This document shows positions 11,413-47,911 of a stretch of 64,000 nucleotides of DNA, piece by piece (position 1 is the stretch's first letter; each line of letters opens with the position of its first letter). The position numbers were made by a program, and so were the translations under genes. Source of the DNA: Nitrospira sp. (lineage in GTDB: Bacteria > Nitrospirota > Nitrospiria > Nitrospirales > Nitrospiraceae); assembly GCA_016788885.1 (NCBI GenBank), contig JAEURX010000042.1, positions 1 to 64,000 on the forward strand. Reading direction: 5' to 3'. The notes below the pieces were generated by a model. The model did not search any database and was not told the DNA's origin. It was given only the letters and a program-made list of their open reading frames with translations.

Positions 11413-14007
11413 ATGCCAGACCGGATCTTTTCCGGGAAATACGTCGTCCAGGAAGAAATCGCCAAGGGCGGCATGGGGGTGCTTTATAAAGCCTTGGACC
11501 GGACTCTCAATCGCCTCGTCGCGATCAAGGTCATCCACGAACAGTTCTCCGGCGATCCCTCCTTCACCGAGCGGTTCATCCGCGAGGCCCGCGCCATGGC
11601 TCGGCTCCATCACGAGAACATCGTCACGATCTTTTCCGTTGAAGAAGATCGGGGCGCTCACTTTATTGTGATGGAGTATTTTTCTGGTATGGACCTCCGG
11701 GCAAAGATCAAGGCCCACCACTCGCTTTCCGTCCGTGAAGCGGTCGAAATCGCACTTCAGGTCGCCACCGCGCTGGCCTTCGCGCATTCCCAAGGCATCG
11801 TTCACCGCGACATCAAACCAGCGAACATTCTGGTTGATACCAGAGGGCGTGTCAAATTGACCGACTTTGGTATTGCGGCTGCATTGGACGAAGCCGCCAT
11901 TACCAGCACGGGGCAAATCATAGGAACGCCCGAGTATATGTCTCCGGAACAGGCCGGAGGCACGGCGGTTGACGGCCGCACCGACCTGTATTCGTTGGGC
12001 ATCGTACTGCATGAAATGATCGTCGGCCAGACTCCATTTCGCAGCATGCCCAAAACCAGCATCCTTACTAAGCTGCTGGATCCGGCATATGAAATTCCGC
12101 TGACATTTCCTCCCGAGGTACCATCGAGCGTGCAAGCCATTGTCGAAGACCTCGTACGCCGGGAACCAGAGTATCGAACGCCGAGAGCTGCGATTCTCGC
12201 AAGCCAGTTAAAGGAATGTCTGGAATCCCTCCCCCGAGAGGATACCGATGAGGCACCCACCATCATCGTCACGCCCTCTTCTCCGGTTACGTCTCGCACA
12301 ACGAGAATCGCCACCGCCCCTTATTCTTTTGAATCGCACACCATCCCCTCCCGGCAGAACATAGGGCCACAGGTCGAGTCAGGGCCACAGTCGCCGGCCG
12401 AACAATCTCAACTCCTTCCTGTTTCTTCAGAAGTGCGTGATGAAGCGACAGATATTCTTCCGCGGACAAAACAGGCCTCGCAGACCTCGCCGCTACTACC
12501 AGAGAGCAAACCTATTCGGCGAACGTCTACCCAGGTAACGATGGCGATCGGAATCCTGAGCCTGATCCTCGTCTTCAGCAGCCTTGCCTATGTTTTATCC
12601 AATGGCATCCTGTTCAGAACTCCTTCGACAGACAAGACCGAACATCCTGCCTCCGCCACAACCACTTCCAGCAATGCCGAACCAACCAACGCCGCAAGTT
12701 CACGTCACGACCCGGTCTCCACGGAGAGTGCCCAACTACAGGCCAACATAGAACAAGAACAGCGACAACTTGAGATAGATCAGGCCAGAGTCGAAGCGAA
12801 ACGCCGCGAAGCAGAGGCGCTTCAAAAAAAAGAACGGGACCAGGCAGCACAACAGGCGAAAATCGCGGAGGAGCAGCGCAAAAAAACCCAGGAGACGGCT
12901 CGTGCCGCTCGCGAACGACAGGAAGCAGAACAGCGCAAGTTTGATCAAGAGCAGAAGCGTCTCGAAAAAGAGAAGGACCTCGCTGCCAAGCAAGCTCAGG
13001 TAGCAGAAGAACAACGTCGGAAGGCGCAGGAAGATGCGCGTGCAGCCCGTGAGCGGGAGGAACTCGAAGCCAAACGGGGCAAGGAGGAGGCCGAGACGAA
13101 GCGTTTGCAGGCTGAACGGCAGCGACTTGAAAAGGAACGGGACTCAGCTGAGGAACAGGCACGCCTGGCGGAAGCTCAGCGTAAGAAGGCGGAAGAGGAA
13201 ACCCGACTCGCCAGAGAGCGGCATGAGGCGCAGCAACAGCGATTCCGCGACGAACAGCAGCGCATGGAAAAAGAAGGCGAACTCGCCGCCCAGAGAGCAG
13301 CCATACAAGAGAAGGAACGTCGCAAAGCGGAGGAGGCGGCCCGATTGGCAAAGGAACGGCTGGAGGCGGAACAGAAACGGCTGCAAACTGAAAGCGATCG
13401 CCTGGATAGAGAGAGAGAGCTGACCGCACAGAAGGCCCGAGCAGAGATGGAGGAACGCCGAAAAGCCCAGGAAGAAGAATCGCGTGTCGCTCGTGAGCGC
13501 TATGAAGCGGAACAGACGCAGCTCCGGGCTGACCGTGAACGGCTGGACAAGGAACGGCGCGAGGCTGCCGCGCAGCAGGCGAAGAGGGACGAGGAGGAAC
13601 GCAAGAGGCGCGTCGCACAGGAAGAAGATCGCCGAAAGAAAGAGGAATTGATCGCCAAACTTCCTTCCGACGGTCAGAGCGGCGCCAGCGCTTCACGGCG
13701 GCAATTACGGGAGCTCCTGGATGAATTTAAGCGAGCCTATGAAGGGGAAGACCTCGAAACCTTGGAGCGACTCTCTGAGATGGGAAGCGATCGACTGGGT
13801 TTCGTGCGCACCATGTTCAGCAACTATCGGACAATTCAGGTGTCGATCCAAAGCCTCGCGGTGATAGACGATGAGGCCTCGGCGACCATCATTCACGAGG
13901 TGCTGATCAACAACAACGGCGAAGCGGTCAAACCAAGCCCGATTCTCAGATCGGCGCGAATCAAGATCCGAAAGACCGGGGATCGATGGGCAAAGATTGA
14001 ATGGTAG
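11413..14007 (+). CDS. transmembrane Ser/Thr protein kinase 1, with long coiled coil
   Basis: An 864-aa PknB-type kinase. The kinase domain (about 10-275) has the glycine loop GGMG (19-22), catalytic Lys39, HRD with Asp133, DFG 151-153 and GTPEYMSPEQ. A transmembrane helix lies near 377-400. Residues about 444-750 are a highly charged KxxAEEARLAxER-type coiled coil of TolA-like periodicity. The C-terminal 105 residues (from about 760) form a compact domain shared with kinase 2 (RRQLRELLDEFKRAYEGEDL... ending DRWAKIEW), probably SnoaL/NTF2-like. The cytoplasmic kinase and extracytoplasmic coiled coil plus sensor-like domain are inferred. Active-site residues are intact. The gene converges on the FHA-transglycosylase gene, 4 bp away. 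Confidence 0.92.
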   Translation: MPDRIFSGKYVVQEEIAKGGMGVLYKALDRTLNRLVAIKVIHEQFSGDPSFTERFIREARAMARLHHENIVTIFSVEEDRGAHFIVMEYFSGMDLRAKIKAHHSLSVREAVEIALQVATALAFAHSQGIVHRDIKPANILVDTRGRVKLTDFGIAAALDEAAITSTGQIIGTPEYMSPEQAGGTAVDGRTDLYSLGIVLHEMIVGQTPFRSMPKTSILTKLLDPAYEIPLTFPPEVPSSVQAIVEDLVRREPEYRTPRAAILASQLKECLESLPREDTDEAPTIIVTPSSPVTSRTTRIATAPYSFESHTIPSRQNIGPQVESGPQSPAEQSQLLPVSSEVRDEATDILPRTKQASQTSPLLPESKPIRRTSTQVTMAIGILSLILVFSSLAYVLSNGILFRTPSTDKTEHPASATTTSSNAEPTNAASSRHDPVSTESAQLQANIEQEQRQLEIDQARVEAKRREAEALQKKERDQAAQQAKIAEEQRKKTQETARAARERQEAEQRKFDQEQKRLEKEKDLAAKQAQVAEEQRRKAQEDARAAREREELEAKRGKEEAETKRLQAERQRLEKERDSAEEQARLAEAQRKKAEEETRLARERHEAQQQRFRDEQQRMEKEGELAAQRAAIQEKERRKAEEAARLAKERLEAEQKRLQTESDRLDRERELTAQKARAEMEERRKAQEEESRVARERYEAEQTQLRADRERLDKERREAAAQQAKRDEEERKRRVAQEEDRRKKEELIAKLPSDGQSGASASRRQLRELLDEFKRAYEGEDLETLERLSEMGSDRLGFVRTMFSNYRTIQVSIQSLAVIDDEASATIIHEVLINNNGEAVKPSPILRSARIKIRKTGDRWAKIEW

Positions 14008-14011
14008 CGCG

Positions 14012-15493
14012 TCAAGGACGGGACCGTACCTGCTCGGCGAACGGATTCTGAAATTCGAATCCGAACAGCGCCGGATTTTCTGCGATCACTGCGGCGGAAA
14101 AAATGTAAAACACATAGTCGTAGGTTTCCTGAGGAACCTTGTGTTGCTTCAATAACTGCCAAAAGTTCCGCTCTCTCGGATTGTTCGGCATCTTTCGGAT
14201 GATGTTGATCACATTTCCCTCTCCCCAGTTATAGGACGCCATCACGAGTAGTCCCGATGCCTGGGCATCGGTATTGTAGATGCGCCGGATATATTTCGCC
14301 GCCGCCCTCGTGGCCTTCTGGAAATGAAACCGTTCATCTTGGGGATCGTATTGGGCGAGGTTTCTCAGCGGTCCTGGCTTTAATCCATACTGCTCGGCAG
14401 TTTGCGGAATAAATTGCCAGATCCCTTTCGCATACCCCATTCTCGTGGGAGGCCCCACTGCTTTTGAGTCGAAGCCGCTCTCTTGGAGTGCCAAATAGAA
14501 AAACTGCGGCGGGAGGTTTTGGGTCCACATTTCATTGGCCACCGTCGGGATAAACCCGTTCTCCCTGGCTCGCTTAATGGCGTTCTGCAGCCGGTCGGTC
14601 GATTTCCAACGACGAATATATTTCTTCACCTCCGACAAAAAATCACGCGGCATGGCCACTTCGCATTCGCCGAAAAGCCGCGCCATCCGAAATACGAGAC
14701 GGTCCTGCTCACCCATCCCCTCATAAATATCCAGTTCGCTCAAAAAGCGATCGTATTGCACTTCCATTTCCCGAAGTCGTTGGCGCTTACTCAGAATTTT
14801 CTCCATGAGGTCTTTGCGCTTAGTCGCGACCACTTCCTCTTCGAGTTCCGAGACCTGAATTTCGACCTGCTTCATCGTGTAGAACATCTCTCCCGCGGTT
14901 CTCGTCATCTGATCGACCCTTGCCCGTTGGTATAATGCGTATCCCACGGCGCAGACTAAGAGGACGACGACAGCCGAAACAGCCCCGCGATACCAGCGTT
15001 TCTGTTGTCGCTCCCGGCGCTTTGCCGCCTCCCGGTACCGACGAGCCTCTTCGCTCTCTTCCGCGGTGTCTCCCCGCTTCCAGCGGTTGACAATCTCCGT
15101 GACCGACGGCAGTTCATCGCCTACTCGTGCCAGCTCGGGCGGCTGATCAGAAAACACAGCTTCATCGCCGACGGCGAGCCATACGGCCGGTCCACCCAAT
15201 CCCAGTTCCACGGTTACGGGTTTTTGCAGTTGGACCCGGGTGACCTGACGCCCGTCGACATACAAACCATGAGTGCTTTGATGATCGGCAAGCCACCATT
15301 GGCCGGCCTCCAGCTTCACCTCCGCGTGGATACGGCTGACCACTCGTTCCGACACCACCACTTGGCAATCGGCCGATCGTCCGATCAGAAACGTGTGAAC
15401 AAAACGCTGCTCGCCGCTCCACGAGGTGCCTATGCAGACCCGTACGCGAACCGGTTGAACTGTGTTGAGCGGGGCAGTTAAATCGTCAGACAT
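14012..15493 (-). CDS. membrane FHA-lytic transglycosylase fusion
   Basis: A 493-aa protein. An FHA phosphothreonine-binding domain occupies about 15-110, with GRS 38-40, SRIH 53-56 and a TH(G) strand. A charged linker leads to one transmembrane helix (about 170-188), then a helical stalk (190-310) and a C-terminal SLT (Slt/MltE-like) transglycosylase domain. There, Glu338 in LALQESGFDSKAVG is the expected catalytic acid, followed by GIWQFIPQTAEQYGL and YNWGEGNV. This implies a cytoplasmic FHA and a periplasmic peptidoglycan-cleaving domain. I used ATG at 15493; a GTG at 15526 is possible. It lies between two Ser/Thr kinases, which suggests phospho-regulated cell-wall cleavage (inference). 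Confidence 0.88.
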   Translation of the reverse strand: MSDDLTAPLNTVQPVRVRVCIGTSWSGEQRFVHTFLIGRSADCQVVVSERVVSRIHAEVKLEAGQWWLADHQSTHGLYVDGRQVTRVQLQKPVTVELGLGGPAVWLAVGDEAVFSDQPPELARVGDELPSVTEIVNRWKRGDTAEESEEARRYREAAKRRERQQKRWYRGAVSAVVVLLVCAVGYALYQRARVDQMTRTAGEMFYTMKQVEIQVSELEEEVVATKRKDLMEKILSKRQRLREMEVQYDRFLSELDIYEGMGEQDRLVFRMARLFGECEVAMPRDFLSEVKKYIRRWKSTDRLQNAIKRARENGFIPTVANEMWTQNLPPQFFYLALQESGFDSKAVGPPTRMGYAKGIWQFIPQTAEQYGLKPGPLRNLAQYDPQDERFHFQKATRAAAKYIRRIYNTDAQASGLLVMASYNWGEGNVINIIRKMPNNPRERNFWQLLKQHKVPQETYDYVFYIFSAAVIAENPALFGFEFQNPFAEQVRSRP

Positions 15494-15564
15494 GTCGGGT
15501 GGGTAACGAGCATGTGATCCGCTCACATCCTAGTGGTGGACTGCAACCTGAGCGAACGGAAAGA

Positions 15565-16762: not shown

Positions 16763-18478
16763 ATGACCAATCAAGTCTTCTCCGGCAAGTACATCGTCCA
16801 GGACGTACTTGCGAAGGGCGGGATGGGAGTCATTTACAAAGCCTTGGATCGCACCCTCAATCGAATCGTCGCCATCAAGGTTGTCCACGAACATCTCTCC
16901 GGCGATCCCTCGTTTACCGAGCGTTTTCTGCGCGAGGCCCGCGCCATGGCTCGGCTGGATCATCAGAATATCGTGACCATCCATGCAGTCGAGGAAGAAC
17001 GGGGCACTCCGTATATCGTCATGGAATATCTTTCAGGCAGCAATCTCCGTGCCTTCATGCAAGCCCGCAAACCGGTTCCTGTTCGAACGAGTGTCGAAAT
17101 TGCGCTCCAGGTGGCTGAAGCCCTGGCTTACGCCCACCATGAAGGGATCGTGCACCGCGACATCAAGCCGGCCAATATTCTTGTCGACAGCCACGGCCGG
17201 GTCAAAATCACGGACTTCGGAATTGCGGCGGCACTCGACGAAGTGTCGATTACGACGGTCGGCCAAGTGCTCGGCACGCCGGAATACATGTCTCCTGAAC
17301 AAGCCAGCGGGGGCAAAGTTGACGGTCGTGCGGATCTCTATTCCCTCGGCATCGTGCTGCACGAGATGGTTGTCGGACACCATCCATTCGGAAATCTGCC
17401 AAAGACGGTGATCCAGAGCCAATTGCACGATACGAACCAGGAAATCAGGCTTGCCTTTCCGGACCATGTCCCGTCGTCGCTGAAAGCCATCATCGAGGAC
17501 CTCGTGCGAAGAGACCGGGACTATCGCACCCCGACGGCCCGATTGCTTGTGAGCCAGCTCAAGGAATGCCTCCACACACTGCCGCCATCAATTGAACCAA
17601 CCGAAGAAGAACGCACTATTCTCGTGACGCCTCATCCCGAAGGGCAGCCTGAACAGCGAATGCCGCCGCCTGTCTCTTCAGAGGCGCCCTATCGGTCTTC
17701 TTCGCCTTTCACTCAGTCCCCATTAGAGACAACACACCCACCGCAAAAGAGCGCGGACGAAGTCGTTTCTGCGCCGTTAGGTCCGGAGGATAAAACGGAC
17801 GTGCATCCGCAACATCCGGCGCAAAGGAAGCCGGAATCTCCTCATGTGCCGCAACCCTTCTGGCAAAGATATAACGTCCTTCCGCTCGTCGCCATAGCAT
17901 TGGCAGGGGTTCTGGCATTAGTGGGCATCATCCTCTACGTCAATATCGTCGACCGACCGCAACCTCCGGATCCCCCTAAGAAGGAAGAGCCCCTGGTTAA
18001 TCCTCCAGGACCGCCTGCTGACAGGGGGACCGGAGACCAGGACAATTTATCTACAGGAGAGACCCCAGAGCCGGACAGAAAAGTTGTGCCGTCACCCCCG
18101 CCACAACTGACAGGCTCGAAAGGCACCAGCCGACCGTCAACCGGGCCAAAGACCATCGCTCCGTCACGACAGCAGCTGGACCAGCTCCTCAGTGACTTTC
18201 AAACAGCCTATGAGAGACAGGATTTGTCCTCCTTGCAGCGCTTGTCCGACATCAGCCCAGACCGCCAGATGTTTTTGGATATGATGTCGAACAATTATTC
18301 GCTCATCACAACCTCCATCCAGGATATCGAAGTCAGGAACAATCAGGCCACGGCAACATTGATTCACGAGCAATTGATCGATAAGAACGGTGAGAAAGTT
18401 GCTCCCGATCAAATCCTGCGGAGCATTCGGATCAGAGTGCGTAAGGACGGCGACCATTGGAGCAAGGTGCTCTGGTAA
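16763..18478 (+). CDS. transmembrane Ser/Thr protein kinase 2
   Basis: A 571-aa paralogue of kinase 1 with identical spacing of Lys39, the HRD Asp133 and DFG 151-153, and an intact GTPEYMSPEQ activation-loop end. A proline-rich juxtamembrane segment (about 280-360) is followed by one transmembrane helix (about 371-395), a Pro-rich linker and the same C-terminal domain as kinase 1 (about 467-571, SRQQLDQLLSDFQTAYERQD... DHWSKVLW), but no coiled coil. It is followed after 17 bp by the broken tssBC fusion, so the two are probably co-transcribed. This links the kinase to a T6SS-type sheath. Confidence 0.92.
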   Translation: MTNQVFSGKYIVQDVLAKGGMGVIYKALDRTLNRIVAIKVVHEHLSGDPSFTERFLREARAMARLDHQNIVTIHAVEEERGTPYIVMEYLSGSNLRAFMQARKPVPVRTSVEIALQVAEALAYAHHEGIVHRDIKPANILVDSHGRVKITDFGIAAALDEVSITTVGQVLGTPEYMSPEQASGGKVDGRADLYSLGIVLHEMVVGHHPFGNLPKTVIQSQLHDTNQEIRLAFPDHVPSSLKAIIEDLVRRDRDYRTPTARLLVSQLKECLHTLPPSIEPTEEERTILVTPHPEGQPEQRMPPPVSSEAPYRSSSPFTQSPLETTHPPQKSADEVVSAPLGPEDKTDVHPQHPAQRKPESPHVPQPFWQRYNVLPLVAIALAGVLALVGIILYVNIVDRPQPPDPPKKEEPLVNPPGPPADRGTGDQDNLSTGETPEPDRKVVPSPPPQLTGSKGTSRPSTGPKTIAPSRQQLDQLLSDFQTAYERQDLSSLQRLSDISPDRQMFLDMMSNNYSLITTSIQDIEVRNNQATATLIHEQLIDKNGEKVAPDQILRSIRIRVRKDGDHWSKVLW

Positions 18479-18495
18479 AGGAAAGGGACAGAACT

Positions 18496-20065
18496 ATGAC
18501 CACACACCGTCCCACCGGCAGCGTCGATGTTGTCCTCACAGCCGGAGAATCCCGTCCGTTGAGACGACCGGCTCAAGACATTCCATTTCGCATGTTACTC
18601 ATGGGCAATTTCAGCGGCAGGGAGAGTTCGCCGGAAGGCGCCAGACGAAGGCCACCGATCACCTGGCGCCCGCTGCGAGTGGATCGGGACAATCTTCAGA
18701 GCATTCCCGGCAAGCTCTCTGCCACACTTGAGGGGCCCCTCCTCGGAGAGAACACGCCCCCCATCACGCTGAGGTTCACCGATCTCGATGACTTTCATCC
18801 TGATCGCCTGGTTCCTCAGATCGAGCCCCTGCAAAAGCTCTCTGACCTGCGCCGGCGCCTGACCAGCCCAGCCACATTCTCTGCGGCTGTCGATGAAGTC
18901 CACGCATGGACACAGCCCCGGCAACCAACGGAAACCCGATCGTTCGCCGCCGCCCCCCACCCCGGCAGGCAACCCTCACTGACTCACCAACCAGCGGTCT
19001 CCTCGACCACATACTCGAACAGGCTCCCACGTCCTTGCACGATCTTGGATCTTCTGAATGGCAGTTATTTCTCCGCTCCATCATCAGGCCACACCTGGTC
19101 CCGAAAGCACATCCGCTGGAAAAAGAGCTGGTCGCACAGGTGAATGACGCCATGAGTCAGATCCTGCGAACCCTGCTCCACCATCCAACATTCCAAGAAC
19201 TGAGAGCGGCCTGGCTGGGGCTCTCATTTCTCGTGGATCGGCTTGAGACCGATTCGCGGCTTCAGCTCTACCTGCTAGATCTCTCCAAGGGTGAACTATC
19301 AGCAGATCTGCCCCGCAGCGACGATCTGTATACGACCCGGCTCTACCGCCTCCTGGTCCAAGAGACGGTCCGCACTCCCGGCGCGCATCCGTGGGCCGTG
19401 GTTGGTGGAGTCTATACGTTCGATCGAACGGGTAACGATGTTGAGATGCTGGATCGGATTGCCCACATTGCCAAGGAAGCCGGAGCGCCGTTTCTGGCCG
19501 CCGCCTCACCCTGCATAGCGGGATGCTCTTCGTTCGGATCAAGGCTGGATCCGGATGACTGGGAAGGGCCGGCGGCCCATCAGGAGGAGCAGCAGCGGTG
19601 GGAACGGCTGCGACAGATTGAGGACGCGTCGTATCTCGGTCTCTCTCTGCCGCGATTCTTACTCTGCCTGCCGTTCGGACGTGAGACAGAAGCGATCAGC
19701 GCCTTTGACTTTGAGGAAATGGCAGGCGGCCCAAACCATGATGATTATTGCTGGGGCAACCCGATCTTCGCCTGTCTTGTGCTCTTGGGGTAGGCCTTTT
19801 CAGCGGATGGCGGCAGCTTCGACCCGGATCAATTCGGGATCTCGACGGGCTTCCCTTGCCTGTCTATCAGGATGAGGCGGGGGATTCCGTGACCAAGCCC
19901 TGTGCTGAAGCCTGGCTCACAGAAAAGGCCGCCGAACGGCTGCTTGAAGCGGGCCTGATGCCCCTCCTCTCCTACAAAAACCAGGATCGCATCTGTCTCG
20001 TGCGGTTCCAGTCGATCGCATCGCCGTTGAAACCGTTGCAAGGCCGGTGGAGTGAGGCCGGATAG
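18496..20065 (+). pseudogene. fused TssB-TssC sheath protein, two frame breaks
   Basis: Three successive frames together encode one sheath fusion of about 523 aa. The first frame (from ATG 18496, GGAAAGGGA upstream) is TssB-like (FRMLLMGNFSGRE, VDRDNL, LRFTDLDDFHPDRLVPQIEPL). The second (about 18955-19790) is TssC-like (EKELVAQVNDAMSQILRTLLHH, LRAAWLGLSFLVDR, PWAVVGGVYTF, YLGLSLPRFLL, YCWGNPIFAC). The third ends with the TssC C-terminus (TEKAAERLLEAGLMPLLSYKN). Each junction needs one extra base: in the C6 tract at 18953-18958 and in the GGGG before the TAG at 19791-19793. With both bases restored the frame is continuous. The cause is either homopolymer sequencing error or recent inactivation. 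It is separate from the intact tssB/tssC at 45.9-47.9 kb. Confidence 0.82.
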
Positions 20066-20086: not shown

Positions 20087-22096
20087 TCACCGTCTGGCCT
20101 GTGTCGGCACAAAGACAAAATCACCCAACCCTTCGTGGCCGGCCATGTGTATAGGACCATAGGTCGGGACCTGCTCCACCTTCATTCGCTCGGCTGCTTC
20201 TGCGACTCGCGCCCTCACCGTCCAGAATAACCGCTCCGTTTCCAATGCAGTCGTGTTTTCCGAAAGCACAGCTAGGAAAGCCGCCGCAAAAATGGAATGC
20301 CCCGCGCCACCGTCATCGAGAACCGGTTTGGCACCGCCGGATGTGAGGGTGGTGCGAATTTTCCTGTCGGCAATCGACCTCAGCAGCAATTGCCTGGCTT
20401 GGTCTTGCACCTCAGGATTGAGCCTGGCCATGGCTGAACGAACGAGTTTACCGGCGAAACAGGAATCGGCAACGACGAGCACTTGCTTAGCCGGAATCAA
20501 CTCCAGCAAGTCGGTCACGGCCGGGAACTCGATCCACTCCGTATTGTCCAGAAGGTCTCCTTCAACCGGGATCCAATACCCTCGATCGATTTCAGGTTCA
20601 AGAAACCCATGCCCTGCATAGTAAATGAGTAAATCGTCCCGCTCAGACAGAGTCTTCCGATAGTCATTGAGCGCTTTTAACGTCTCCTTTCTACTGGAAT
20701 CCTTGATCACCTTGACATGGAAACCATATTGATCCTGCAACACGTTCGCTACAGCAGTCGCATCCGCAATGGCGGTGTTCAGCGGAGTCCATTGGCGATA
20801 GTGATCATTTCCGATAACAAGAGCATGGTACTGCCCAACCCTTGAGAGACCAGTTGTGGTCTCTCCCTCGCCGGCAGCCGCTGCACCAGACCTCACCATC
20901 AGCTTCATGTTGCCCTGTTTGTCCTGCCTATCGATGGCGACAAGATCCATGGGCACAGCCGATCTGGTCCCCTGGCTTGTCTGGACAGGCAACGAGAAGG
21001 TTCCCTGTTCGTCGACGACCACCGAGGCTCCATTGGCGGTGAGTGACCGAAGACCAGCGTGAGCGATCACACGTCCCGTGAGACGCAGCGGCCGTCCCGG
21101 TTGGATCACGACTGGAATCCGGCCTTGCTCAACTCGTATTCCCCTCGTCACCATGACGGGCGGATCGACGATCTGGAGAAAAGGCCCAGCAAGACCAAGA
21201 TCCTGAGGAGGAGATTGCCGGATCAATGAAACTTGTTTTTGGGCAGCCTCCTTCAAAGACAGCACCTGCATCTGCAGCTTTGCCACTTCGCTCTCACGGG
21301 CTTTGAGCAGTCGCTCCTGCTTGGCAATCACATCGCTGACTGTTGACGCAGGCCGGTTATCCGAAGTTCTCCCCTCCTCCTTCAACTGCTGCAGCCTGCG
21401 CCGCTCGTCATCGAGTAGGCTGGTCCGTTCGGCCAGCCGACTACGGGTCTGTTCGAGTTCTTGTTGAACGATATCCAATCGAACCTGTGGATCTCCCGCC
21501 GGAGCGCTGTTGCTTCCGCTCTCCACATCGGCCAGATTCCCTTCCCTCAGCCCGCTTGCCTTGGCAAACCACTTTCCGGCCTCAGCGCTACTTTTCTCGA
21601 CGCCGATTCCCTGTTCATACAACCGCCCTAAATTCACTGCCGCTCGACTGACGCCGCGCTCAGCAGCCTGTCGATACCAGGATGCCGCCTTGGGATAGTT
21701 CGGCCGTCCATCGGCGCCCTTCTCATACAAGACTCCCACGTAGTACTGCGCATCTGGGTCCCCTCCCTCTGCCGCACTGATCCATACCGTGAGCGCCGTC
21801 CGGTAGTCTGCCCGATCAAGCGCGACGTACTCTCCACCACGAATCGCGCAATCTTCCGCTGTCGTCCTGATTGGCCGACGGTCAGTGAGATAGGTCACAC
21901 GAGTGCCAAGTTGCCTGATCTGCCCGGGAAGAAGACAATCGACCACATCAAACGGATTGGCAGATCGTGGGTCTTTTAACTCGAGCTTTGACGTGCCATC
22001 GAGCTGCTCTGACGCACAGCCTACGAGCAGTCCCATCAGAAGTGCAGTCAGCCCATCACGGAGTTTTGCTCGAATATGTTGTGGAGCGGTTCTCAT
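20087..22096 (-). CDS. caspase-like (C14) lipoprotein with Sel1 repeats
   Basis: A 669-aa protein. A lipoprotein signal ends LLVGCAS (Cys about 27). Sel1/TPR-like repeats lie at about 100-185 (ALTVWISAAEGGDPDAQYYV, YPKAASWYRQAAERGVSRAA), then a coiled coil (about 205-290), an Ig/beta segment, and a C-terminal caspase p20-like domain (about 415-660) with His496 in YYAGHG and Cys546 in VVADSCFAGKL. This is a clan CD cysteine protease predicted to sit on an outer or inner membrane leaflet. It converges on the tssBC fusion (21 bp apart) and diverges from the outer-membrane protein gene. No Shine-Dalgarno is obvious at the ATG. The substrate is unknown. Confidence 0.88.
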   Translation of the reverse strand: MRTAPQHIRAKLRDGLTALLMGLLVGCASEQLDGTSKLELKDPRSANPFDVVDCLLPGQIRQLGTRVTYLTDRRPIRTTAEDCAIRGGEYVALDRADYRTALTVWISAAEGGDPDAQYYVGVLYEKGADGRPNYPKAASWYRQAAERGVSRAAVNLGRLYEQGIGVEKSSAEAGKWFAKASGLREGNLADVESGSNSAPAGDPQVRLDIVQQELEQTRSRLAERTSLLDDERRRLQQLKEEGRTSDNRPASTVSDVIAKQERLLKARESEVAKLQMQVLSLKEAAQKQVSLIRQSPPQDLGLAGPFLQIVDPPVMVTRGIRVEQGRIPVVIQPGRPLRLTGRVIAHAGLRSLTANGASVVVDEQGTFSLPVQTSQGTRSAVPMDLVAIDRQDKQGNMKLMVRSGAAAAGEGETTTGLSRVGQYHALVIGNDHYRQWTPLNTAIADATAVANVLQDQYGFHVKVIKDSSRKETLKALNDYRKTLSERDDLLIYYAGHGFLEPEIDRGYWIPVEGDLLDNTEWIEFPAVTDLLELIPAKQVLVVADSCFAGKLVRSAMARLNPEVQDQARQLLLRSIADRKIRTTLTSGGAKPVLDDGGAGHSIFAAAFLAVLSENTTALETERLFWTVRARVAEAAERMKVEQVPTYGPIHMAGHEGLGDFVFVPTQARR

Positions 22097-28375: not shown

Positions 28376-29161
28376 TCACTCGATTGTCACAAGGACGATA
28401 GGTTCAACCGTGAGCGAGTAGTGTTGAAGGCAATTCAGCAAGGTATTCCAGGAAAATTCACTCGCTTCAAACAGAGAAAAGACAAGCTCGGCAGAGTACT
28501 CGTCGTAAGCGGCCAGGGTTTCTCGCCACACCTCCGCCTCGTAGGCCGACTTCACAGGAGGACCGTAGGCTCCCTGACCCATGAGAGCAACCCACTCCCC
28601 GACCCGCGCCACCAGACTCTCCAAAACGTCTCTTAGCACAGGCCGGGAGAACTCCACTACACAACGGCGCTCCTTCTGGTAATCCCCAGGGTCTTCCCGC
28701 TCAAGGCGGATCTGAAACCGTTGTGACAGCGGCGGGTATGCCGCCGCCTCAGTCCCCCATGTGGCGTCGGGCAAGTGCACTACCCGAGCCTGCTGGCCTG
28801 GCGTCAGATCGGAAACAGTGACATCGCGGACCGGCTGCATTCGTGCGGACCACCTCCAGACAAGATGGCGGACCAACTGGAAGGCGCGGACATCCACCTC
28901 ATAGCCGCTAAGCAGAAAGGCTGGTTGCATTGGAGATGAGAGATTTGCACGCGTAAGGCCCAGAGAGGAGTCAGAAGGTGACGCCATCTCCCGGGCGAAG
29001 GCACCGTGGCCGCCTGCCGTTATGAATGAGCCAACCAGAACTTCGAGATTGGTCAGCTGCTCTGGAGTAGGTACCGCTCCAAGCCCGAACTCCAAGAGCA
29101 GGTCTTGCCGCGGAGCATTCGTCCAACTAATGGACAATCTTGGAAGAGGCTCAGCCGCCAT
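28376..29161 (-). CDS. unknown 261-aa protein after the DUF3396 gene
   Basis: Not recognised by family. Soluble, no signal. Notable segments are LLLEFGLGAVPTPEQLTNLE near the start, a middle WRWSARMQPVRDV, and ARVGEWVALMGQGAYGP. ATG 29161 overlaps the end of the DUF3396 gene by 11 bp, showing tight translational coupling. It may be a second accessory or immunity component of that cargo module. Confidence 0.6.
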   Translation of the reverse strand: MAAEPLPRLSISWTNAPRQDLLLEFGLGAVPTPEQLTNLEVLVGSFITAGGHGAFAREMASPSDSSLGLTRANLSSPMQPAFLLSGYEVDVRAFQLVRHLVWRWSARMQPVRDVTVSDLTPGQQARVVHLPDATWGTEAAAYPPLSQRFQIRLEREDPGDYQKERRCVVEFSRPVLRDVLESLVARVGEWVALMGQGAYGPPVKSAYEAEVWRETLAAYDEYSAELVFSLFEASEFSWNTLLNCLQHYSLTVEPIVLVTIE

Positions 29162-30101
29162 TGGCGAACCTCCTTAACCACATCTTTGTTTTGTCACGGT
29201 GGTCCCCACCCGGGAGATCCAGGGCTCCATATCTCTCGATGATAGGTTCCTGCAATGATGCCACAGCATTGTATACTGAGCGGTAATCGGGAAGCAGCTC
29301 GCCGCGATTAACGTGTCCCCAAAGTGGGGCGGGGCCCGCTTGAAGGATCACGCCTGCGGTCACGGGAAGTACGCCCACCGAGTCAGTTAATTGCTGGCGC
29401 AAAGCTTTAATACCTCCAAGTCGGTCGGCAAATTCCCTCCCAAGCATGGTTAACCAATTGACACCCTTAATCCCCTCGCGTCGAAGAGCCACCGAGTCAA
29501 CGACTGAACGGGATATGTCCAGCCCAGGGTGTTGTATTGACAGACCCCAAGCGGCTCTGTCGCTTTTCTCTTGATGATATGGGCTAAGTGAAAGGGCGAA
29601 TCCCGCATGCCCGGAATGGAACGGAAAATGTTCACACGCGTCGACAGCAAAGGCGAGCAACTCTCCAGGCTTTTCCATCGCCCATCGCGCAGGGAACGCA
29701 CAACGGACGACATTTGCATCAACACCGTAGCCAGGATACCCCTGCTCCTCGCCCCAAACAAAGAACGAGTGCTCGCTCGCATCATCGTACCGAGCACCAT
29801 CCTTGAGTTCAATACTTAGGACATCGCGCGGAGGCGCCCCAGGCCTTAGCCAACCCCGTAACATGTCCAGGGCGCGTGGTGTGCAAGCTTTGTGACGCGT
29901 CATGTTCTCCGTGGCATACCACCGCAAAACGCCCGGCGGGCAAAGCGACAGGAATTTTTCGTAGATGTGCAAGACAGACCTGGGGATGGCCGAAAGGTCC
30001 TGTCCCGTGTAGAGGACCACGTCGCAGCAAACGGAGACTAGCCTCGAATCGCCCTCCCTGATATTGAATCCGGCTACAGTGCTGGTTGGCTGATCAGTCA
30101 T
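29151..30101 (-). CDS. DUF3396 (TsiV-type) T6SS immunity-family protein
   Basis: A 316-aa protein matching the DUF3396 family, members of which are immunity proteins to T6SS effectors, including nuclease effectors (family knowledge). Segments: VVLYTGQDLSAIPRSVLHIYEKF, SIELKDGARYDDASEHSFFVWGEEQ, VNWLTMLGREFADRLGG and a C-terminal GHVNRGELLPDYR. ATG 30101 overlaps the end of the preceding small gene by 8 bp, so it is coupled to it, as expected for immunity behind a toxin. Cytoplasmic. Confidence 0.82.
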   Translation of the reverse strand: MTDQPTSTVAGFNIREGDSRLVSVCCDVVLYTGQDLSAIPRSVLHIYEKFLSLCPPGVLRWYATENMTRHKACTPRALDMLRGWLRPGAPPRDVLSIELKDGARYDDASEHSFFVWGEEQGYPGYGVDANVVRCAFPARWAMEKPGELLAFAVDACEHFPFHSGHAGFALSLSPYHQEKSDRAAWGLSIQHPGLDISRSVVDSVALRREGIKGVNWLTMLGREFADRLGGIKALRQQLTDSVGVLPVTAGVILQAGPAPLWGHVNRGELLPDYRSVYNAVASLQEPIIERYGALDLPGGDHRDKTKMWLRRFANGG

Positions 30102-37383: not shown

Positions 37384-40092
37384 CTATGCCACCTCGTAGC
37401 GGAAATTCCCTGCGGGCTCGACCGTGATATGGACCTTGTTGACCGATTCCCCTGCCGCCATGCGCGCGAGAAACTCCGTCGAGAGTTCCGGCAGCAAGGT
37501 GCGGGTGAGAATGTGGTCGACATTCCGCGCGCCGCTTTCCACCTCGGTGCAGCGGTCGGCAATCGCCGTGACCAATGCTTCGTCGTAGGACATCGCCGCG
37601 CGATGGTTTTCTTTGATTCGGCGCATGATCCGGCTGAGCTGCAATCCGATGATGCGCCGCATGATGTCGGGAGAGATCGGAAAGAACGGCACGACGATGA
37701 GTCGTCCTAGAAAGGCCGGCTTGAAATACTTCAACAGATCAGGCCTGATGGCATCGGCCAATGCCTCTGGCTCAGGCCTGGTCTCCGGATCTGCGCAGAG
37801 CTTCATCACGGTATCCGTGCCGGCGTTGGAGGTCATAATGATCACGGTGTTCTTGAAATCGATGTCACGCCCCTCGCCGTCTTTCATCATGCCCTTGTCA
37901 AAAACCTGGTAGAAAATATCCTGCACGCCCGGATGGGCTTTTTCCATCTCATCCAACAGGATCACGCTGTATGGTCTTCGGCGCACGGCTTCCGTCAACA
38001 CCCCTCCCTCGCCATACCCGACATAACCGGGCGGTGACCCCATGAGCAGAGAGACTTTGTGCTCTTCCTTGAATTCGGACATATTGAGGGTGGTGATATT
38101 TTGATCGCTGCCGAACAGCAACTCGGCGAGCGCCAGTCCTGTTTCGGTCTTACCCACGCCGCTTGGTCCGACGAACATGAAGACGCCGATCGGCCGGCGA
38201 GGATCTTCCAGCTTGGCTCGCGCCGTACGCAAACGTTGACTGAGCGCATCCAGGGCATGGGATTGTCCCACCACGCGTTTTTCCAAGTTCTCCTTGAGAC
38301 TCAAGACCGTGTTGATCTCGTCTTTGACCATGCGTCCGATCGGGATGCCGGTCCAGGCCGAGATCACCTGGGCAATGGCCTGTCCGTCTACACTAGGCTG
38401 CAAGAGGGGGCTTTCTCCCTGGAGCGAGGCCAACTCTTTTTTCAGCCTTGTCAGATCGGCCTGCAATGTCTCGACTTCTTGCGGAGTCAGTCGGACGGGC
38501 GTCTTTTCCGTTGCCTTGTCAGGAGCCTTGTCGGTTGTTGCCTTCTCCGGGATCTTCGGCGGCGCTGCCTGCTGCTCCAGTTTCTGACGGATCCCTGCAA
38601 TCTCGCCGACCAGCTTCTTTTCCTGTTCCCACCGGATCTTGAGTTCAGCCTGGCGTTTCTCTTCCGCGGCCTTCTCCCGGCCCAATTCAGCCACGCGGTC
38701 CTGATGGTTGCCGCCCGTGATGTCTTCCCGTTCCAGAATGTCGATTTCCGTATCGATGAGTGAGATTCGCCGGCGTGCGTCTTCCAATGCGGGAGGTTCA
38801 GCGACCTGCCCGAGGGCCACTCTGGCGCAGGCCGTATCCAGGACGCTCACGGCCTTGTCCGGTAATTGCCGGCCTGAAATATAGCGATGCGAGAGCTTCA
38901 CCGCAGCCTCGATCGCTTCATCCAAGAGCCTTACTTTATGGTGCTGTTCCAGAGTCCCGGCCAATCCCCGCATCATATTGATGGCGGTGGCCTCCGTCGG
39001 TTCTTCCACCTTCACCACCTGAAACCGCCTGGTCAGCGCAGGATCTTTCTCAAAGTATTTTTTATATTCGGCCCAGGTGGTCGCAGCGATGGTTCGTAGT
39101 TCGCCCCGGGCCAGCGCCGGCTTGAGAATGTTGGCTGCGTCGCCCTGTCCCGCCGCTCCTCCGGCGCCGATCAACGTGTGCGCCTCATCGATAAACGTGA
39201 TAATAGGTTGCGGGGACGCTTTGACTTCGTTGATCACCGACTTGAGCCGGCTTTCGAATTCCCCCTTCACCCCTGCTCCTGCCTGTAACAACGCGAGGTC
39301 GAGCACCCGCACGGTGACGTTCTGTAGCGGCGGCGGCACATCGCCGGCGACGATTCTCAGCGCCAAGCCTTCCACCACAGCGGTTTTCCCTACTCCGGCC
39401 TCCCCGGTGAGAATGGGATTGTTCTGCCTGCGTCTGGTCAGAATATCGATGACCTGCCTGATTTCCGCATCGCGGCCCAATACCGGATCGACCTGCCCCT
39501 GTTTCGCCCTCGCGGTCAGATCGATGGTGAACTGATCGATGGCCGGAGTCCTGGAGGCATGGGGAGCCCCCTGTGCCGCCGGCGTGTCGACCCCGCCCGT
39601 CTGGACCTCTTCCAGGTCTTCCGCCGATCCGGCGACGATCTTCGTCAGCTGGGCATGCAGGTCCTCAGCCGAGATCTTTTGCACCTCGGGCGACATCTCG
39701 CGCATCATGCGGGCAAAATCGTCTTCGGCGAGTAAGGCCAGCATCACATGACCGGACCGCACGCGATTCACTCCATATTCAATGGACGCCAACGACCAGG
39801 CTTCATTGATGAGGCGCGGGACCCGTGGCGCCAGGGTCGGGGTCCTCGCGTTGCCGGTCTTAAACCGATCGAGGGTGCGCGTGATATCCCGGGCCAATCG
39901 CGATTGATCAATGCCATAGTGGCGACAAATCTTGTGGACATCCGTATTCGACATTTCCAGCACCTTCGCCAGGAGATGTTCGATGTCCACATCGTAATGT
40001 GTCCGACTGAGACACAACCCTGCGGCCCCTTCCAATGCGCGGCGACAGGTATCGTTGAGCTTGCCGATGAGTCCCTTGAGATTGATGTTCAT
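37384..40092 (-). CDS. clpV: TssH/ClpV AAA+ ATPase
   Basis: A 902-aa Clp-type ATPase that disassembles contracted sheath. N-terminal repeat domain (about 1-150), first AAA with GEAGVGKTAVVEG, a middle coiled coil with an unusually long KxPEKATTDKAPDKATEK-like insertion, second AAA with GPSGVGKTETGLALAE, and DEMEKAHPGVQDIFYQVFD. ATG 40092 has GAGGA upstream; the longer frame to 40203 only overlaps tssG. It lies 24 bp after tssG. Confidence 0.96.
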   Translation of the reverse strand: MNINLKGLIGKLNDTCRRALEGAAGLCLSRTHYDVDIEHLLAKVLEMSNTDVHKICRHYGIDQSRLARDITRTLDRFKTGNARTPTLAPRVPRLINEAWSLASIEYGVNRVRSGHVMLALLAEDDFARMMREMSPEVQKISAEDLHAQLTKIVAGSAEDLEEVQTGGVDTPAAQGAPHASRTPAIDQFTIDLTARAKQGQVDPVLGRDAEIRQVIDILTRRRQNNPILTGEAGVGKTAVVEGLALRIVAGDVPPPLQNVTVRVLDLALLQAGAGVKGEFESRLKSVINEVKASPQPIITFIDEAHTLIGAGGAAGQGDAANILKPALARGELRTIAATTWAEYKKYFEKDPALTRRFQVVKVEEPTEATAINMMRGLAGTLEQHHKVRLLDEAIEAAVKLSHRYISGRQLPDKAVSVLDTACARVALGQVAEPPALEDARRRISLIDTEIDILEREDITGGNHQDRVAELGREKAAEEKRQAELKIRWEQEKKLVGEIAGIRQKLEQQAAPPKIPEKATTDKAPDKATEKTPVRLTPQEVETLQADLTRLKKELASLQGESPLLQPSVDGQAIAQVISAWTGIPIGRMVKDEINTVLSLKENLEKRVVGQSHALDALSQRLRTARAKLEDPRRPIGVFMFVGPSGVGKTETGLALAELLFGSDQNITTLNMSEFKEEHKVSLLMGSPPGYVGYGEGGVLTEAVRRRPYSVILLDEMEKAHPGVQDIFYQVFDKGMMKDGEGRDIDFKNTVIIMTSNAGTDTVMKLCADPETRPEPEALADAIRPDLLKYFKPAFLGRLIVVPFFPISPDIMRRIIGLQLSRIMRRIKENHRAAMSYDEALVTAIADRCTEVESGARNVDHILTRTLLPELSTEFLARMAAGESVNKVHITVEPAGNFRYEVA

Positions 40093-40115
40093 GTCTGTCC
40101 TCTCCGCGAACCCTG

Positions 40116-41180
40116 TTACGCCCTCGCTGCCTGTGCCGTCATGGTGGAGCCGGAGAACTGTACGTCGTCTGCATGGTGATCGAACTCTTTGGTCTTCAGC
40201 CATGTCGTCCAGCCGAGCCTCGGGGCATAGGTGTCCGTCGACCGGAGTCTCGTGGGCGGCACTTCCTCGGCTCGTAATCTCAATTGCACATCGAAATCCA
40301 GTTCCGGCCCGGCAAACAATTTCGTCAGTTGCACGAGGGTCGGATAGGCCCGACCGGAGGGCAACAACCGATCGAACTGCTCAAATTCCAGCGGACCCAA
40401 CTCGACCTTAAACGCAGCCTGCTGATCCCAGATTTTGGTTCCAGCCAGCGCAGACCAGCCCAATATATTGTTGCTTCCGGTCACGCCGATCGTGGTCCAA
40501 TCTGTTTCTTCCAAAGTGAGCCAGGCCCCGATAAATTGATTCACACGCACCGGTACCTGAAAATAGTCCGCGAGGCAGCGCTCCAGCGCTTCCGCTGATC
40601 GCGGGCGTTGTCCCAGGAGTCCGACATAACGGAGGATCGATCGTTCATCGATGGTCAATCGATCGCATAGTCCCGTCGTACCTAGGCCGGCGACAGCGAA
40701 CAGACAGCGGGCGAACCGATCGTCGCTCCCCTTCAACAGCCATTGTTCAAACCCCGCCGTGCAATCGTGTTTTTCCCAGGCCCGATAAAACAGGGAGATC
40801 ATGCGATGGTTGAACACATCGAAAAAATCACGCAGCGTCTGGTCCTTGGCTTGCAACCGTTCCAGCATGAGTTCGGTGTAATAGCGGGGAAGGACACCCT
40901 GGGGACCGGTGAGCCCCATAAACGCCACGGTCATTTCAGCCGGCCGTCTCTCGTCGCGGGCCTGATTGATCTGATGAATGGCGCTCGGGGGGAAGGCAAG
41001 GGATTGATGGGCACGGAAGCGAACGATTTCTTTCGAGGGAATGGCGCTCTCGCCGACCGGCTGCCGTTCCGGATAGACGCGCGCCAGCAGCCGGACCGCT
41101 TGAAAGAAATCGAAGCGAAAGCCCCGCTGCGTGAGGTCCTGTTTTAGATCAGGATCTGTTCCCCTGCTCTGGGCGGCCAT
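40116..41180 (-). CDS. tssG: TssG baseplate protein
   Basis: A 354-aa TssG: FRFDFFQAVRLLARVYPER at the start, then PSKEIVRFRAHQSLAFPPSAI, GLTGPQGVLPRYYTELML and DFFDVFNHRMISLFYRAWEKH, and a C-terminal GRAYPTLVQLTKLFAGPELDFDVQL-like segment. It forms the baseplate wedge with TssF, TssE and TssK. It overlaps the end of tssF by 37 bp, so the two are translationally coupled. Confidence 0.95.
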   Translation of the reverse strand: MAAQSRGTDPDLKQDLTQRGFRFDFFQAVRLLARVYPERQPVGESAIPSKEIVRFRAHQSLAFPPSAIHQINQARDERRPAEMTVAFMGLTGPQGVLPRYYTELMLERLQAKDQTLRDFFDVFNHRMISLFYRAWEKHDCTAGFEQWLLKGSDDRFARCLFAVAGLGTTGLCDRLTIDERSILRYVGLLGQRPRSAEALERCLADYFQVPVRVNQFIGAWLTLEETDWTTIGVTGSNNILGWSALAGTKIWDQQAAFKVELGPLEFEQFDRLLPSGRAYPTLVQLTKLFAGPELDFDVQLRLRAEEVPPTRLRSTDTYAPRLGWTTWLKTKEFDHHADDVQFSGSTMTAQAARA

Positions 41181-43779: not shown

Positions 43780-43814
43780 TTCAGACAAAAATTGCCACCA
43801 CCATCTCGTTGAAT

Positions 43815-45858: not shown

Positions 45859-47352
45859 TTACCGCTTCGCCGGGGGTGGTAACTCTGCCACTAACCGAAG
45901 GGAGACCGTCAGTTCATCCAACTGAAAGTGCGGCTTCAAAAACGCAATGGCTTTGTAGACACCAGGCTTCCCAGCCACTTCTGCGACTTCTACTCGAGCT
46001 TCCTTCAGAGGAAACTTGGCTTTGATCTCTTGCCCAGCATCTTCGGTGCTCACGACATACTTGCTGATCCAGCGATTCAGGAAATCTTCGCAATCTTTGC
46101 GCGTCATGAAGCTTCCGATCTTGTCCCGCATAATGGACTTGAGATAATGGGCGAACCGTGACATGGCCAGAAGATACTGAAGCTGCGTAGAGAGGCGCGC
46201 ATTGGCGTTCGCCGCATCCGTGTCATATTTCTTGGCTTTCTGGCAGGATTGCGCCCCGAAGAACGCCGCAAAGTCGGTCCCCTTGCAGTGTACGAGAGGA
46301 ATAAACCCGAGGTCCGACAGCTCCTTCTCGCGACGATCGGTGATGGCAATTTCTGTCGGGCATTTCAGTGCGATCTCTCCCTCATCGGTGCGGAACGTAT
46401 GAGTCGGAAGTCCATCCACACGCCCGCCTCCTTCGACCCCGCGGATGGCTGCGGTCCACCCATACTTGGCAAACGCGTCCGTGAGCCGGGCCCCCATGGC
46501 ATAGGCGGCATTTCCCCAGAGATACTTGCTGTGATCAGTACCATCCACATCTTCTTTGAAATTAAATGCCTCCACCGGTACCGTCTCCGGACCATAGGGC
46601 AGCCGCATCAGGACATGAGGTAAGGTCAGCCCTACATACCGAGAGTCCTCTGACTCGCGGAAGGACTTCCACTTGGCATAATCCGGAGTCTCAAATTTCT
46701 TGGCCAGATCACGAGGATTGGGAAGGTCCGTGAACGTTTCAAGCCCGAGCAGTCCTGGCGCAGCCGCCGAAATGAACGGCGCATGAGCCGAAGCCGCCAC
46801 ATTCGACACCTTCTCCAGCAAGGCCAAATCCTGAGGATGTCGCCCGAATTCGAAGTCTCCGATCAAGGCACCATAAGGCGCTCCACCGAAGGTTCCGTAC
46901 TCCTCTTCGTAGACCTTTTTGAACAGCGCGCTCTGGTCGAATTCCACCGCCTTCTCGAGATCCTTCCGCAGTTCATCCTTGCTGATGTTCAACACGCGGA
47001 TCTTTAGCATGGTGCTGGTTTCGCTCTGCATGACGAAATAGTGCAGCCCGCGCCAGGCCCCTTCCAGCTTTTGAAACTCCGGCGAATGCATGATGGCATT
47101 GAGCTGCGCGGAGAGGACCTTGTCGATGTCTGCGATCCGCGCATTGATCGTCGCCTCGAGGTCTTTGGATACCCGGAGGGTGCCCTTCATCACTTCTTCC
47201 ACGAGGGTGGCAATCTGACGGCGCGACTGGTCTCGCTCCCAATCATCCTTTCCGATACGGGTCTCATTGATAATTTGATCAAGAACCCCACTCTCCACCG
47301 TTCCTGCCGCCGCCGCGCCCTGGGGCTGCGCTTGTTTCGCTTCTTCCGCCAT
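45859..47352 (-). CDS. tssC: TssC large sheath subunit
   Basis: A 497-aa EvpB/VipB-type sheath protein with the full family pattern: IADIDKVLSAQLNAIMHSPEFQKLEGAWRGL-type start, FGGAPYGALIGDFEFG, SAAAPGLLGLE, YVGLTLPHVLMRLPYG, YLWGNAAYAMG, and a C-terminal AFLKPHFQLDELTVSLRLVA. Together with TssB it forms the contractile sheath. It follows tssB by 2 bp. Intact, unlike the fused copy at 18.5-20.1 kb. Confidence 0.97.
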   Translation of the reverse strand: MAEEAKQAQPQGAAAAGTVESGVLDQIINETRIGKDDWERDQSRRQIATLVEEVMKGTLRVSKDLEATINARIADIDKVLSAQLNAIMHSPEFQKLEGAWRGLHYFVMQSETSTMLKIRVLNISKDELRKDLEKAVEFDQSALFKKVYEEEYGTFGGAPYGALIGDFEFGRHPQDLALLEKVSNVAASAHAPFISAAAPGLLGLETFTDLPNPRDLAKKFETPDYAKWKSFRESEDSRYVGLTLPHVLMRLPYGPETVPVEAFNFKEDVDGTDHSKYLWGNAAYAMGARLTDAFAKYGWTAAIRGVEGGGRVDGLPTHTFRTDEGEIALKCPTEIAITDRREKELSDLGFIPLVHCKGTDFAAFFGAQSCQKAKKYDTDAANANARLSTQLQYLLAMSRFAHYLKSIMRDKIGSFMTRKDCEDFLNRWISKYVVSTEDAGQEIKAKFPLKEARVEVAEVAGKPGVYKAIAFLKPHFQLDELTVSLRLVAELPPPAKR

Positions 47353-47354
47353 GG

Positions 47355-47888
47355 TTAGCCCTCCTTCTGGGAACCACCTTCAGTTCCCAGTCCTGCTTCT
47401 TTTCCGATCTTCTGCTGCAACTCAGAGTTGGCGATAATCTCCTGGAGTTTCTCCGCCAACTTGTCGTTCCCGTCGGTTTTCGCCAGAAGGGCGGACAGCT
47501 GCTTTCTGACCTCGACTAGCTTCTTCAAAGGCTCGACTTGGTCGGCGACCTGCTCGGGGCTGAAGTCATCGATGTTATTGAAGCGCAACTCCACCCCAAT
47601 TTTGGTGTCGTCATTGGTTAGCTTGTTATCCACCTTATACGCGAGACGAGGGCCGATCCCCTTCATCACATCATTGAAGTTATCTCGATCGGTCTCCACG
47701 AACTTGCGCTTAGGATCCTTCAAGAGCGCAGGTGGCTGCTCTGGCTTTCCAGCCAAGTCTGCCATGACGCCAACGACGAAGGGCAACTCCTTCATCTCAA
47801 TGGCGCCGCCCGTCTCCACGTCATAGGTGATCTGCACACGCGGCGGACGAACTCGATCCAACTTGTGTTGAGTGCTTTCACGCGCCAT
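47355..47888 (-). CDS. tssB: TssB small sheath subunit
   Basis: A 177-aa VipA-type protein: RPPRVQITYDVETGGAIEMKELPFVVGVMADL-type N-terminus (residues about 12-45), KFVETDRDNFNDVM, LRFNNIDDFSPEQVADQVEPL. The ATG at 47888 sits 6 bases after GGAGG and is preferred over 47894. It pairs with TssC; the C-terminal helical tail is the usual ClpV-exposed region. Confidence 0.96.
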   Translation of the reverse strand: MARESTQHKLDRVRPPRVQITYDVETGGAIEMKELPFVVGVMADLAGKPEQPPALLKDPKRKFVETDRDNFNDVMKGIGPRLAYKVDNKLTNDDTKIGVELRFNNIDDFSPEQVADQVEPLKKLVEVRKQLSALLAKTDGNDKLAEKLQEIIANSELQQKIGKEAGLGTEGGSQKEG

Positions 47889-47911
47889 GAACATCCTCCA
47901 TCGATAGATGA

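What the first reader, a model, noticed from the sequence alone, without database searches (positions are those of the whole stretch)
18496..20065. Fused TssB-TssC sheath gene broken by two 1-base deletions in homopolymers
TssB and TssC halves are in one gene with a Pro-rich linker, an unusual layout, and it is co-oriented with a Ser/Thr kinase 17 bp upstream. Both breaks are consistent with one missing base in a C6 and a G4 tract, so sequencing error is as likely as pseudogenisation. If restored, this is a second, fused sheath separate from the intact tssB/tssC.
Basis: partly seen in the sequence, partly recalled or inferred. Interest (0 to 1): 0.65.

Follow-up and report, generated by a model that had tools for sequence, protein, structure and literature searches.

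The report
Broken fused sheath-like secretion gene
In this Nitrospira genome a gene that joins the two sheath proteins of the type VI secretion "harpoon" into one shortened protein is a recently broken copy, but intact relatives in other bacteria form an apparently unnamed branch of sheath-like accessory proteins.

Summary
The fusion's own upstream region is gone. About 16 other orthologous genes in the window show no frame break, so this is a recent pseudogene rather than sequencing error. Intact fusions (477-523 aa, or embedded in 592-1205 aa proteins) occur in Nitrospirota, Rhodobacterales plasmids and beta/gammaproteobacteria, nearly always inside T6SS loci. Their TssC parts form one clade (100/100) apart from canonical TssC. 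None is a second sheath: all lack the TssC C-terminal (VipB_2) domain that makes the inner handshake, and those tested score below NCBI's TssB and TssC cut-offs. They keep the TssB-TssC body plus a ClpV-recognition-like helix that matches the class of the TssC in the same genome. Most likely they are non-polymerising sheath mimics acting on ClpV or sheath ends; this mechanism is inferred. New variant of a known kind.

The parts
18496..18946 (+). TssB-like N-terminal part of the broken fusion (reading frame 1; PF05591 match at residues 27-123, about 18574-18864)
   Evidence: Pfam E 4.3e-13; 67% identical to N. defluvii; dN/dS 0.22-0.30
18947..18958 (+). lesion 1: one-base loss in the linker (frame 1 to frame 3); exact base not determinable
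   Evidence: DNA alignment with three orthologues
18999..19016 (+). LLDHIL helix at the start of the TssC part, like the ClpV-recognition motif of TssC N-termini
   Evidence: alignment with VipB 5mxn chain start SLLDEIM; LLDEII motif of VipB in PMC4239648; family alignment
18987..19790 (+). TssC-like part, first stretch (reading frame 3; PF05943)
   Evidence: Pfam E 4.8e-52; 79% identical to N. defluvii
19791..19793 (+). lesion 2: in-frame nonsense codon TAG where all intact relatives have a sense codon
   Evidence: (one TAG read through)
19811..19812 (+). lesion 3: one-base loss (frame 3 to frame 2), not in a homopolymer
19829..20065 (+). TssC-like part, last stretch (reading frame 2) and natural stop; no VipB_2 domain follows
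   Evidence: 86% identical to N. defluvii; PF05943 positions 242-300
18479..18495 (+). 17-base gap between kinase stop and fusion ATG; the conserved upstream region of the relatives is missing
   Evidence: homology to the relatives' fusion region begins at 18478
16763..18478 (+). Ser/Thr protein kinase (571 aa), intact, direct neighbour of the fusion in this genome only
   Evidence: Pfam Pkinase E 1.2e-55; orthologue in G013 followed by two regulator genes
20087..22096 (-). Sel1-repeat/caspase-domain protein, convergent neighbour, intact; conserved next to the fusion in N. defluvii
45859..47352 (-). canonical TssC (497 aa), intact, with the VipB_2 domain
   Evidence: dN/dS 0.013-0.016
47355..47894 (-). 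canonical TssB (179 aa), intact
   Evidence: dN/dS 0.03
37384..40203 (-). canonical TssH/ClpV ATPase, intact

Best explanation
SHOWN: 18496-20065 is a pseudogene, with three inactivating lesions and loss of its own upstream region, of a T6SS accessory gene that is intact in sister species. That gene belongs to a monophyletic family of fused, truncated TssB-TssC paralogues found in at least two phyla. The family keeps the middle and outer parts of a sheath protomer (the TssB core with its helix, and the TssC N-terminal sheath domain) but lacks the TssC C-terminal VipB_2 domain and the TssB N- and C-terminal arms, so it should be unable to join the inner handshake that builds a sheath. INFERRED: the protein is a non-polymerising sheath mimic. 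After its linker it carries a TssC-type, class-matched ClpV-recognition helix, so it most likely docks on ClpV, and possibly on exposed sheath subunits or ends, and tunes sheath recycling or length. In this strain it has been lost, while the rest of the T6SS stays intact and under strong constraint, so it is dispensable there. Identity and pseudogene state about 0.9; a ClpV or sheath-end role about 0.35.
For: Three lesions against three orthologues, with other orthologous window genes in single frames. No acceleration on the window branch: 44 synonymous/46 nonsynonymous against 34/50 in N. defluvii, so the loss is recent. Intact fusions in N. defluvii, G013, G446, G346, G254, G806, G588, Rhodobacterales and Eleftheria. 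Location inside T6SS loci, between ClpV and VgrG in G446, G254 and the Rhodobacterales, beside TagH and PP2C in G588. One clade, 100/100. VipB_2 absent and present once per T6SS-bearing Nitrospira genome. Below NCBI's TssB and TssC cut-offs. Domain roles in PMC5807055; LLDEII-ClpV binding in PMC4239648. The motif matches the class of the canonical TssC N-terminus in 8 of 8 systems.
Against: The motif match rests on one evolutionary switch (the three F-type fusions are one clade). No usable structure model was obtained (pLDDT 41). In P. aeruginosa H1, a TagJ-bearing system, the TssC N-terminus is not needed for ClpV binding; the window T6SS also has TagJ and its ClpV N-domain is closest to ClpV1. 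The G806 fusion lies outside its T6SS cluster. Constraint on the fusion (dN/dS mostly 0.1-0.4) is much looser than on the sheath. No experiment exists.
Confidence: 0.7

Rival explanations
1. Sequencing or assembly error: the gene is intact in the organism and the breaks are base-calling artefacts.
For: Draft of 75 contigs; lesion 1 may lie in a C6 tract; the window branch shows no excess of amino-acid changes.
Against: Lesion 2 is a substitution to a stop and lesion 3 is not in a homopolymer; about 16 other orthologous genes in the window are unbroken; the upstream region is also rearranged. Three hits in one of roughly 14-16 similar-sized genes has a chance of about 0.005 under uniform error (rough estimate).
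Confidence: 0.08
2. The fusion is a sheath-end terminator: it docks on the distal or first ring of the TssBC sheath and, lacking handshake strands, stops growth or marks the end.
For: It keeps domain 2 and 3 elements that contact neighbours but no handshake domain. Contractile systems with several sheath isoforms are known (own knowledge: Afp2/3/4).
Against: No direct evidence; distal-end roles are already assigned to TssA and TagA proteins (PMC6745524 and PMC7545191, abstracts).
Confidence: 0.22
3. It works as part of effector or spike loading, as its loci often place it just before vgrG.
For: The fusion lies next to vgrG, or one gene away, in G446, G254 and the Rhodobacterales.
Against: Not adjacent to vgrG in Nitrospira, G588 or G806; no spike or adaptor domain.
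Confidence: 0.1
4. It is a second functional contractile sheath.
For: TssB and TssC halves in one chain.
Against: No VipB_2 domain in any intact member tested; found with a canonical tssB/tssC pair wherever the locus is complete; own clade; loose constraint.
Confidence: 0.03
5. The two halves are now made as separate overlapping ORFs (ATG 18906 opens the second frame) and still work as a pair.
For: An ATG-started ORF 18906-19793 covers the TssC half; lesion 1 is in the linker.
Against: Lesions 2 and 3 remove the last ~90 residues of the TssC part.
Confidence: 0.05

Closest known systems
TssC/VipB contractile sheath large subunit (TIGR03355, PF05943+PF18945)
   Same: The N-terminal sheath domain aligns over its whole length (PF05943 2-299 of 301), with a TssC-like N-terminal helix
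   Different: No PF18945 domain (about 120 residues missing), below the NCBI cut-off (231 against 271.5 bits), separate clade
TssB/VipA contractile sheath small subunit (TIGR03358, PF05591)
   Same: Core and the PFRxxIMGxFSG and HPD motifs; helix that contacts TssC
   Different: Lacks the N-terminal stretch of TagJ-class TssB and the C-terminal part; below the NCBI cut-off (42 against 97.25 bits)
TssC40/ImpD-type second TssC (Agrobacterium Atu4340; PMC3702570)
   Same: A TssC paralogue next to a canonical one, not redundant with it
   Different: A second TssC such as that of L022 keeps the C-terminal domain, has no TssB part, and falls outside the fusion clade
TagJ/HsiE accessory protein
   Same: T6SS accessory factor that links sheath and ClpV (PMC4239648)
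   Different: No sequence relation seen; the fusion is sheath-derived

Membership tests
TssC equivalog (TIGR03355) | score above 271.5 bits | tested here: not met
   231, 231, 247, 148 and 166 bits for five intact fusions
TssC equivalog (TIGR03355) | C-terminal VipB_2 (gpW/gp25-like) domain, part of the inner handshake | tested here: not met
   no PF18945 match in fusions; present in canonical TssC; one copy per T6SS-bearing Nitrospira genome
TssC equivalog (TIGR03355) | N-terminal sheath domain PF05943 | tested here: met
   E 5e-67 over 2-299 of 301
TssB equivalog (TIGR03358) | score above 97.25 bits | tested here: not met
   42, 55, 52, 26 and 23 bits
fused TssB-TssC(N) clade defined here | TssB core and TssC N-terminal domain in one ORF, no VipB_2, one clade | tested here: met
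   intact orthologues, tree 100/100
fused TssB-TssC(N) clade defined here | a functional, single-frame gene in this genome | tested here: not met
   three lesions
ClpV-binding sheath protein | TssC-type N-terminal helix that docks in the ClpV N-domain | tested here: inconclusive
   motif present and class-matched; binding not testable here
contractile sheath | polymerises around the Hcp tube and contracts | not testable with these tools
   structure prediction failed (pLDDT 41)

The most novel reading that the evidence does not exclude
A previously unnamed T6SS component: a fused, handshake-less TssB-TssC protein that carries the ClpV-recognition helix of its own system and controls sheath recycling or length by competing with, capping or recruiting to the true sheath, in at least two phyla.
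Probability: 0.3. Interest if true: 0.7.

Novelty: new variant of a known kind. Interest (0 to 1): 0.45.

Why it matters
Genome annotation calls intact members 'contractile sheath large subunit', which hides a separate branch of T6SS parts. If they bind ClpV or sheath ends, they would be a sheath-derived regulator of how often or how far the machine fires. The natural loss in this Nitrospira strain beside intact sister copies gives a ready comparison.

Tried and rejected
AlphaFold2 with the few sequences allowed gave pLDDT 41 and was not used. Viral contigs held no fusion relatives and one canonical TssC. Nine literature searches found no described TssB-TssC fusion of this kind. Programmed -1 frameshifting at the C6 tract was considered and rejected: intact orthologues need none, and it would not pass lesions 2 and 3. 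The long open frames reported for G306 looked like a fusion but proved to be separate tssB and tssC genes.

Full report
OBSERVATION. Three successive + strand frames at 18496-20065 encode a TssB-like stretch (PF05591, E 4.3e-13) and two TssC-like stretches (PF05943, E 4.8e-52 and 1.4e-5). A Ser/Thr kinase ends 17 bases upstream. The genome is a Nitrospira (nearest named relative with the gene: Candidatus N. defluvii, FP929003.1), 3.92 Mb in 75 contigs, 99.8% complete.

INTACT ORTHOLOGUES. N. defluvii has one 523-aa ORF and G013 one 520-aa ORF. G028 has the gene split over two contig ends, each part in a single frame. The middle piece of the window is 70-79% identical to them.

WHAT IS BROKEN. 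The DNA alignment with the orthologues shows three lesions. Lesion 1 is a one-base loss in the poorly conserved linker (about 18947-18958). Lesion 3 is a one-base loss at 19811/19812, outside any homopolymer. An independent six-frame search agrees: frame 3 is read through one TAG to about 19859.

ERROR OR DECAY. N. defluvii proteins matched back to the window in single frames for about 16 other genes, including T6SS core genes. The fusion was the only real gene in several frames. Three hits in one of 14-16 similar genes would have a chance of about 0.005 under uniform error (rough estimate). The conserved stretch upstream of the fusion start in N. defluvii, G013 and G028 is absent: homology begins at 18478, the kinase stop. 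In G013 a histidine kinase and a sigma-54-type response regulator lie between the same kinase and the fusion. The best match to that regulator anywhere in the window's genome is only 55% identical, which suggests that the pair was lost here; the direction of that change (deletion here or insertion there) is inferred. dN/dS of the pieces is 0.11-0.41 across comparisons, and the window branch shows no surplus of amino-acid changes (44 synonymous/46 nonsynonymous, against 34/50 for N. defluvii). The breakage is therefore recent. The canonical tssC and tssB are far more constrained (0.013-0.03).

THE FAMILY. Full-length fusions were found in other Nitrospirota (G446, G346, G254; 41-44% identity to N. 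defluvii), in T6SS plasmids of Rhodobacterales and Eleftheria (30-32% identity), and in 2 of 398 sampled genomes of the phylum of L022, a gammaproteobacterial MAG. In the Rhodobacterales the fusion is the C-terminal half of a 1063-1205 aa protein after a long acidic, repetitive N-terminal half. The fusion lies between ClpV and VgrG in G446, G254 and the Rhodobacterales, next to TagH and close to PP2C in G588, and next to PP2C in G346; the G806 copy lies away from its T6SS cluster. In a maximum-likelihood tree the TssC parts of 12 fusions form one group with 100/100 support, apart from canonical TssC and from the second TssC of L022 (some long branches). In Nitrospira 9 of 29 genomes have a T6SS by the VipB_2 domain, each with one copy, and four of these carry the fusion.

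WHAT THE PROTEIN LACKS AND KEEPS. None of the intact fusions tested has PF18945, and the TssB match ends at about position 121-134 of 155. All five intact fusions tested fall below the NCBI cut-offs for TssC and TssB. Profile alignment to the solved sheath 5n8n covers TssC chain residues 22-337 of 461 and TssB 25-128 of 132. By the cryo-EM description of that sheath (PMC5807055), the inner handshake uses TssC strands 11-13 and TssB strand 1. Domain 2 uses TssB strands 2-3 with TssC strands 1-4 and 8, and domain 3 uses TssB helix 117-133 with TssC helices 39-54 and 66-86. The fusion therefore appears to keep domains 2 and 3 and to lack the TssC part of domain 1. It should not polymerise as a sheath (inference).

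CLPV MOTIF. VipB binds ClpV by an N-terminal helix with an LLDEII motif (PMC4239648). The fusion has such a helix at the start of its TssC part, after the linker. In eight systems the helix type matches the canonical TssC of the same genome (canonical/fusion). LL-type: Nitrospira VLDQII/LLDHIL, G446 LLDQII/FLDQVL, G254 LLDQIL/LLAQIL, G588 LLEQAI/ILDTML, G806 LLSQIM/FLDSIM. F-type: Qingshengfaniella SSEFESLLQKEF/LSDFQRLIGDT, Leisingera SAEFANLLQKEF/LSAFQQLIKDT, Eleftheria SDFSALLNKAF/LDDFARLVQ. The three F-type fusions are one clade, so this is one switch, not eight independent events. Against a simple groove-binding model, the window T6SS has TagJ and a ClpV N-domain closest to P. aeruginosa ClpV1, in whose system the TssC N-terminus is not required for ClpV binding.

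CONCLUSION. The window holds a recently dead copy of a conserved T6SS accessory gene whose family is, as far as nine literature searches show, not described. The most likely role of intact members is a non-polymerising sheath mimic that engages ClpV or sheath ends. That role is inferred, not shown. The model attempt failed, and no binding or deletion data were found.

Noticed in passing
L029:1-910 (G047, strand -): A second broken fusion: the TssB and TssC parts lie in different frames and the match is cut near the contig end; the genome has no VipB_2 TssC. An independent loss seems likely.
   Followed up: partly
window 60624-63998: Long protein (at least 1125 aa, runs on to the window's end) with an N-terminal stretch that looks TIR-like by eye, then NB-ARC and WD40 repeats, next to the T6SS cluster.
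   Followed up: no
window 29151-30104: TsiV-type T6SS immunity protein (PF11876, E 3e-40) downstream of the vgrG cluster; an effector-immunity module probably lies at 28-35 kb.
   Followed up: no
window 42958-43788: TssE with about 150 extra N-terminal residues before its gp25 domain; the gene before it (43815-44789) has no Pfam match.
   Followed up: no
window 11413-14007 and 16763-18478: Two related Ser/Thr kinases with a shared C-terminal domain, flanking an FHA-lytic transglycosylase protein (14012-15526, - strand).
   Followed up: no
L080:12177-13055 and L081:11478-12308: An ion channel gene (PF00520 in L080) sits before the fusion in Rhodobacterales T6SS plasmids, and a caspase gene flanks the L080 locus; a caspase gene also neighbours the Nitrospira fusion.
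   Followed up: partly
L080:13501-16692 and L081:13144-16761: About 500-620 residues of acidic, repetitive sequence (repeats like DDLLGGLD) precede the fusion part, with an acidic tail after it.
   Followed up: no
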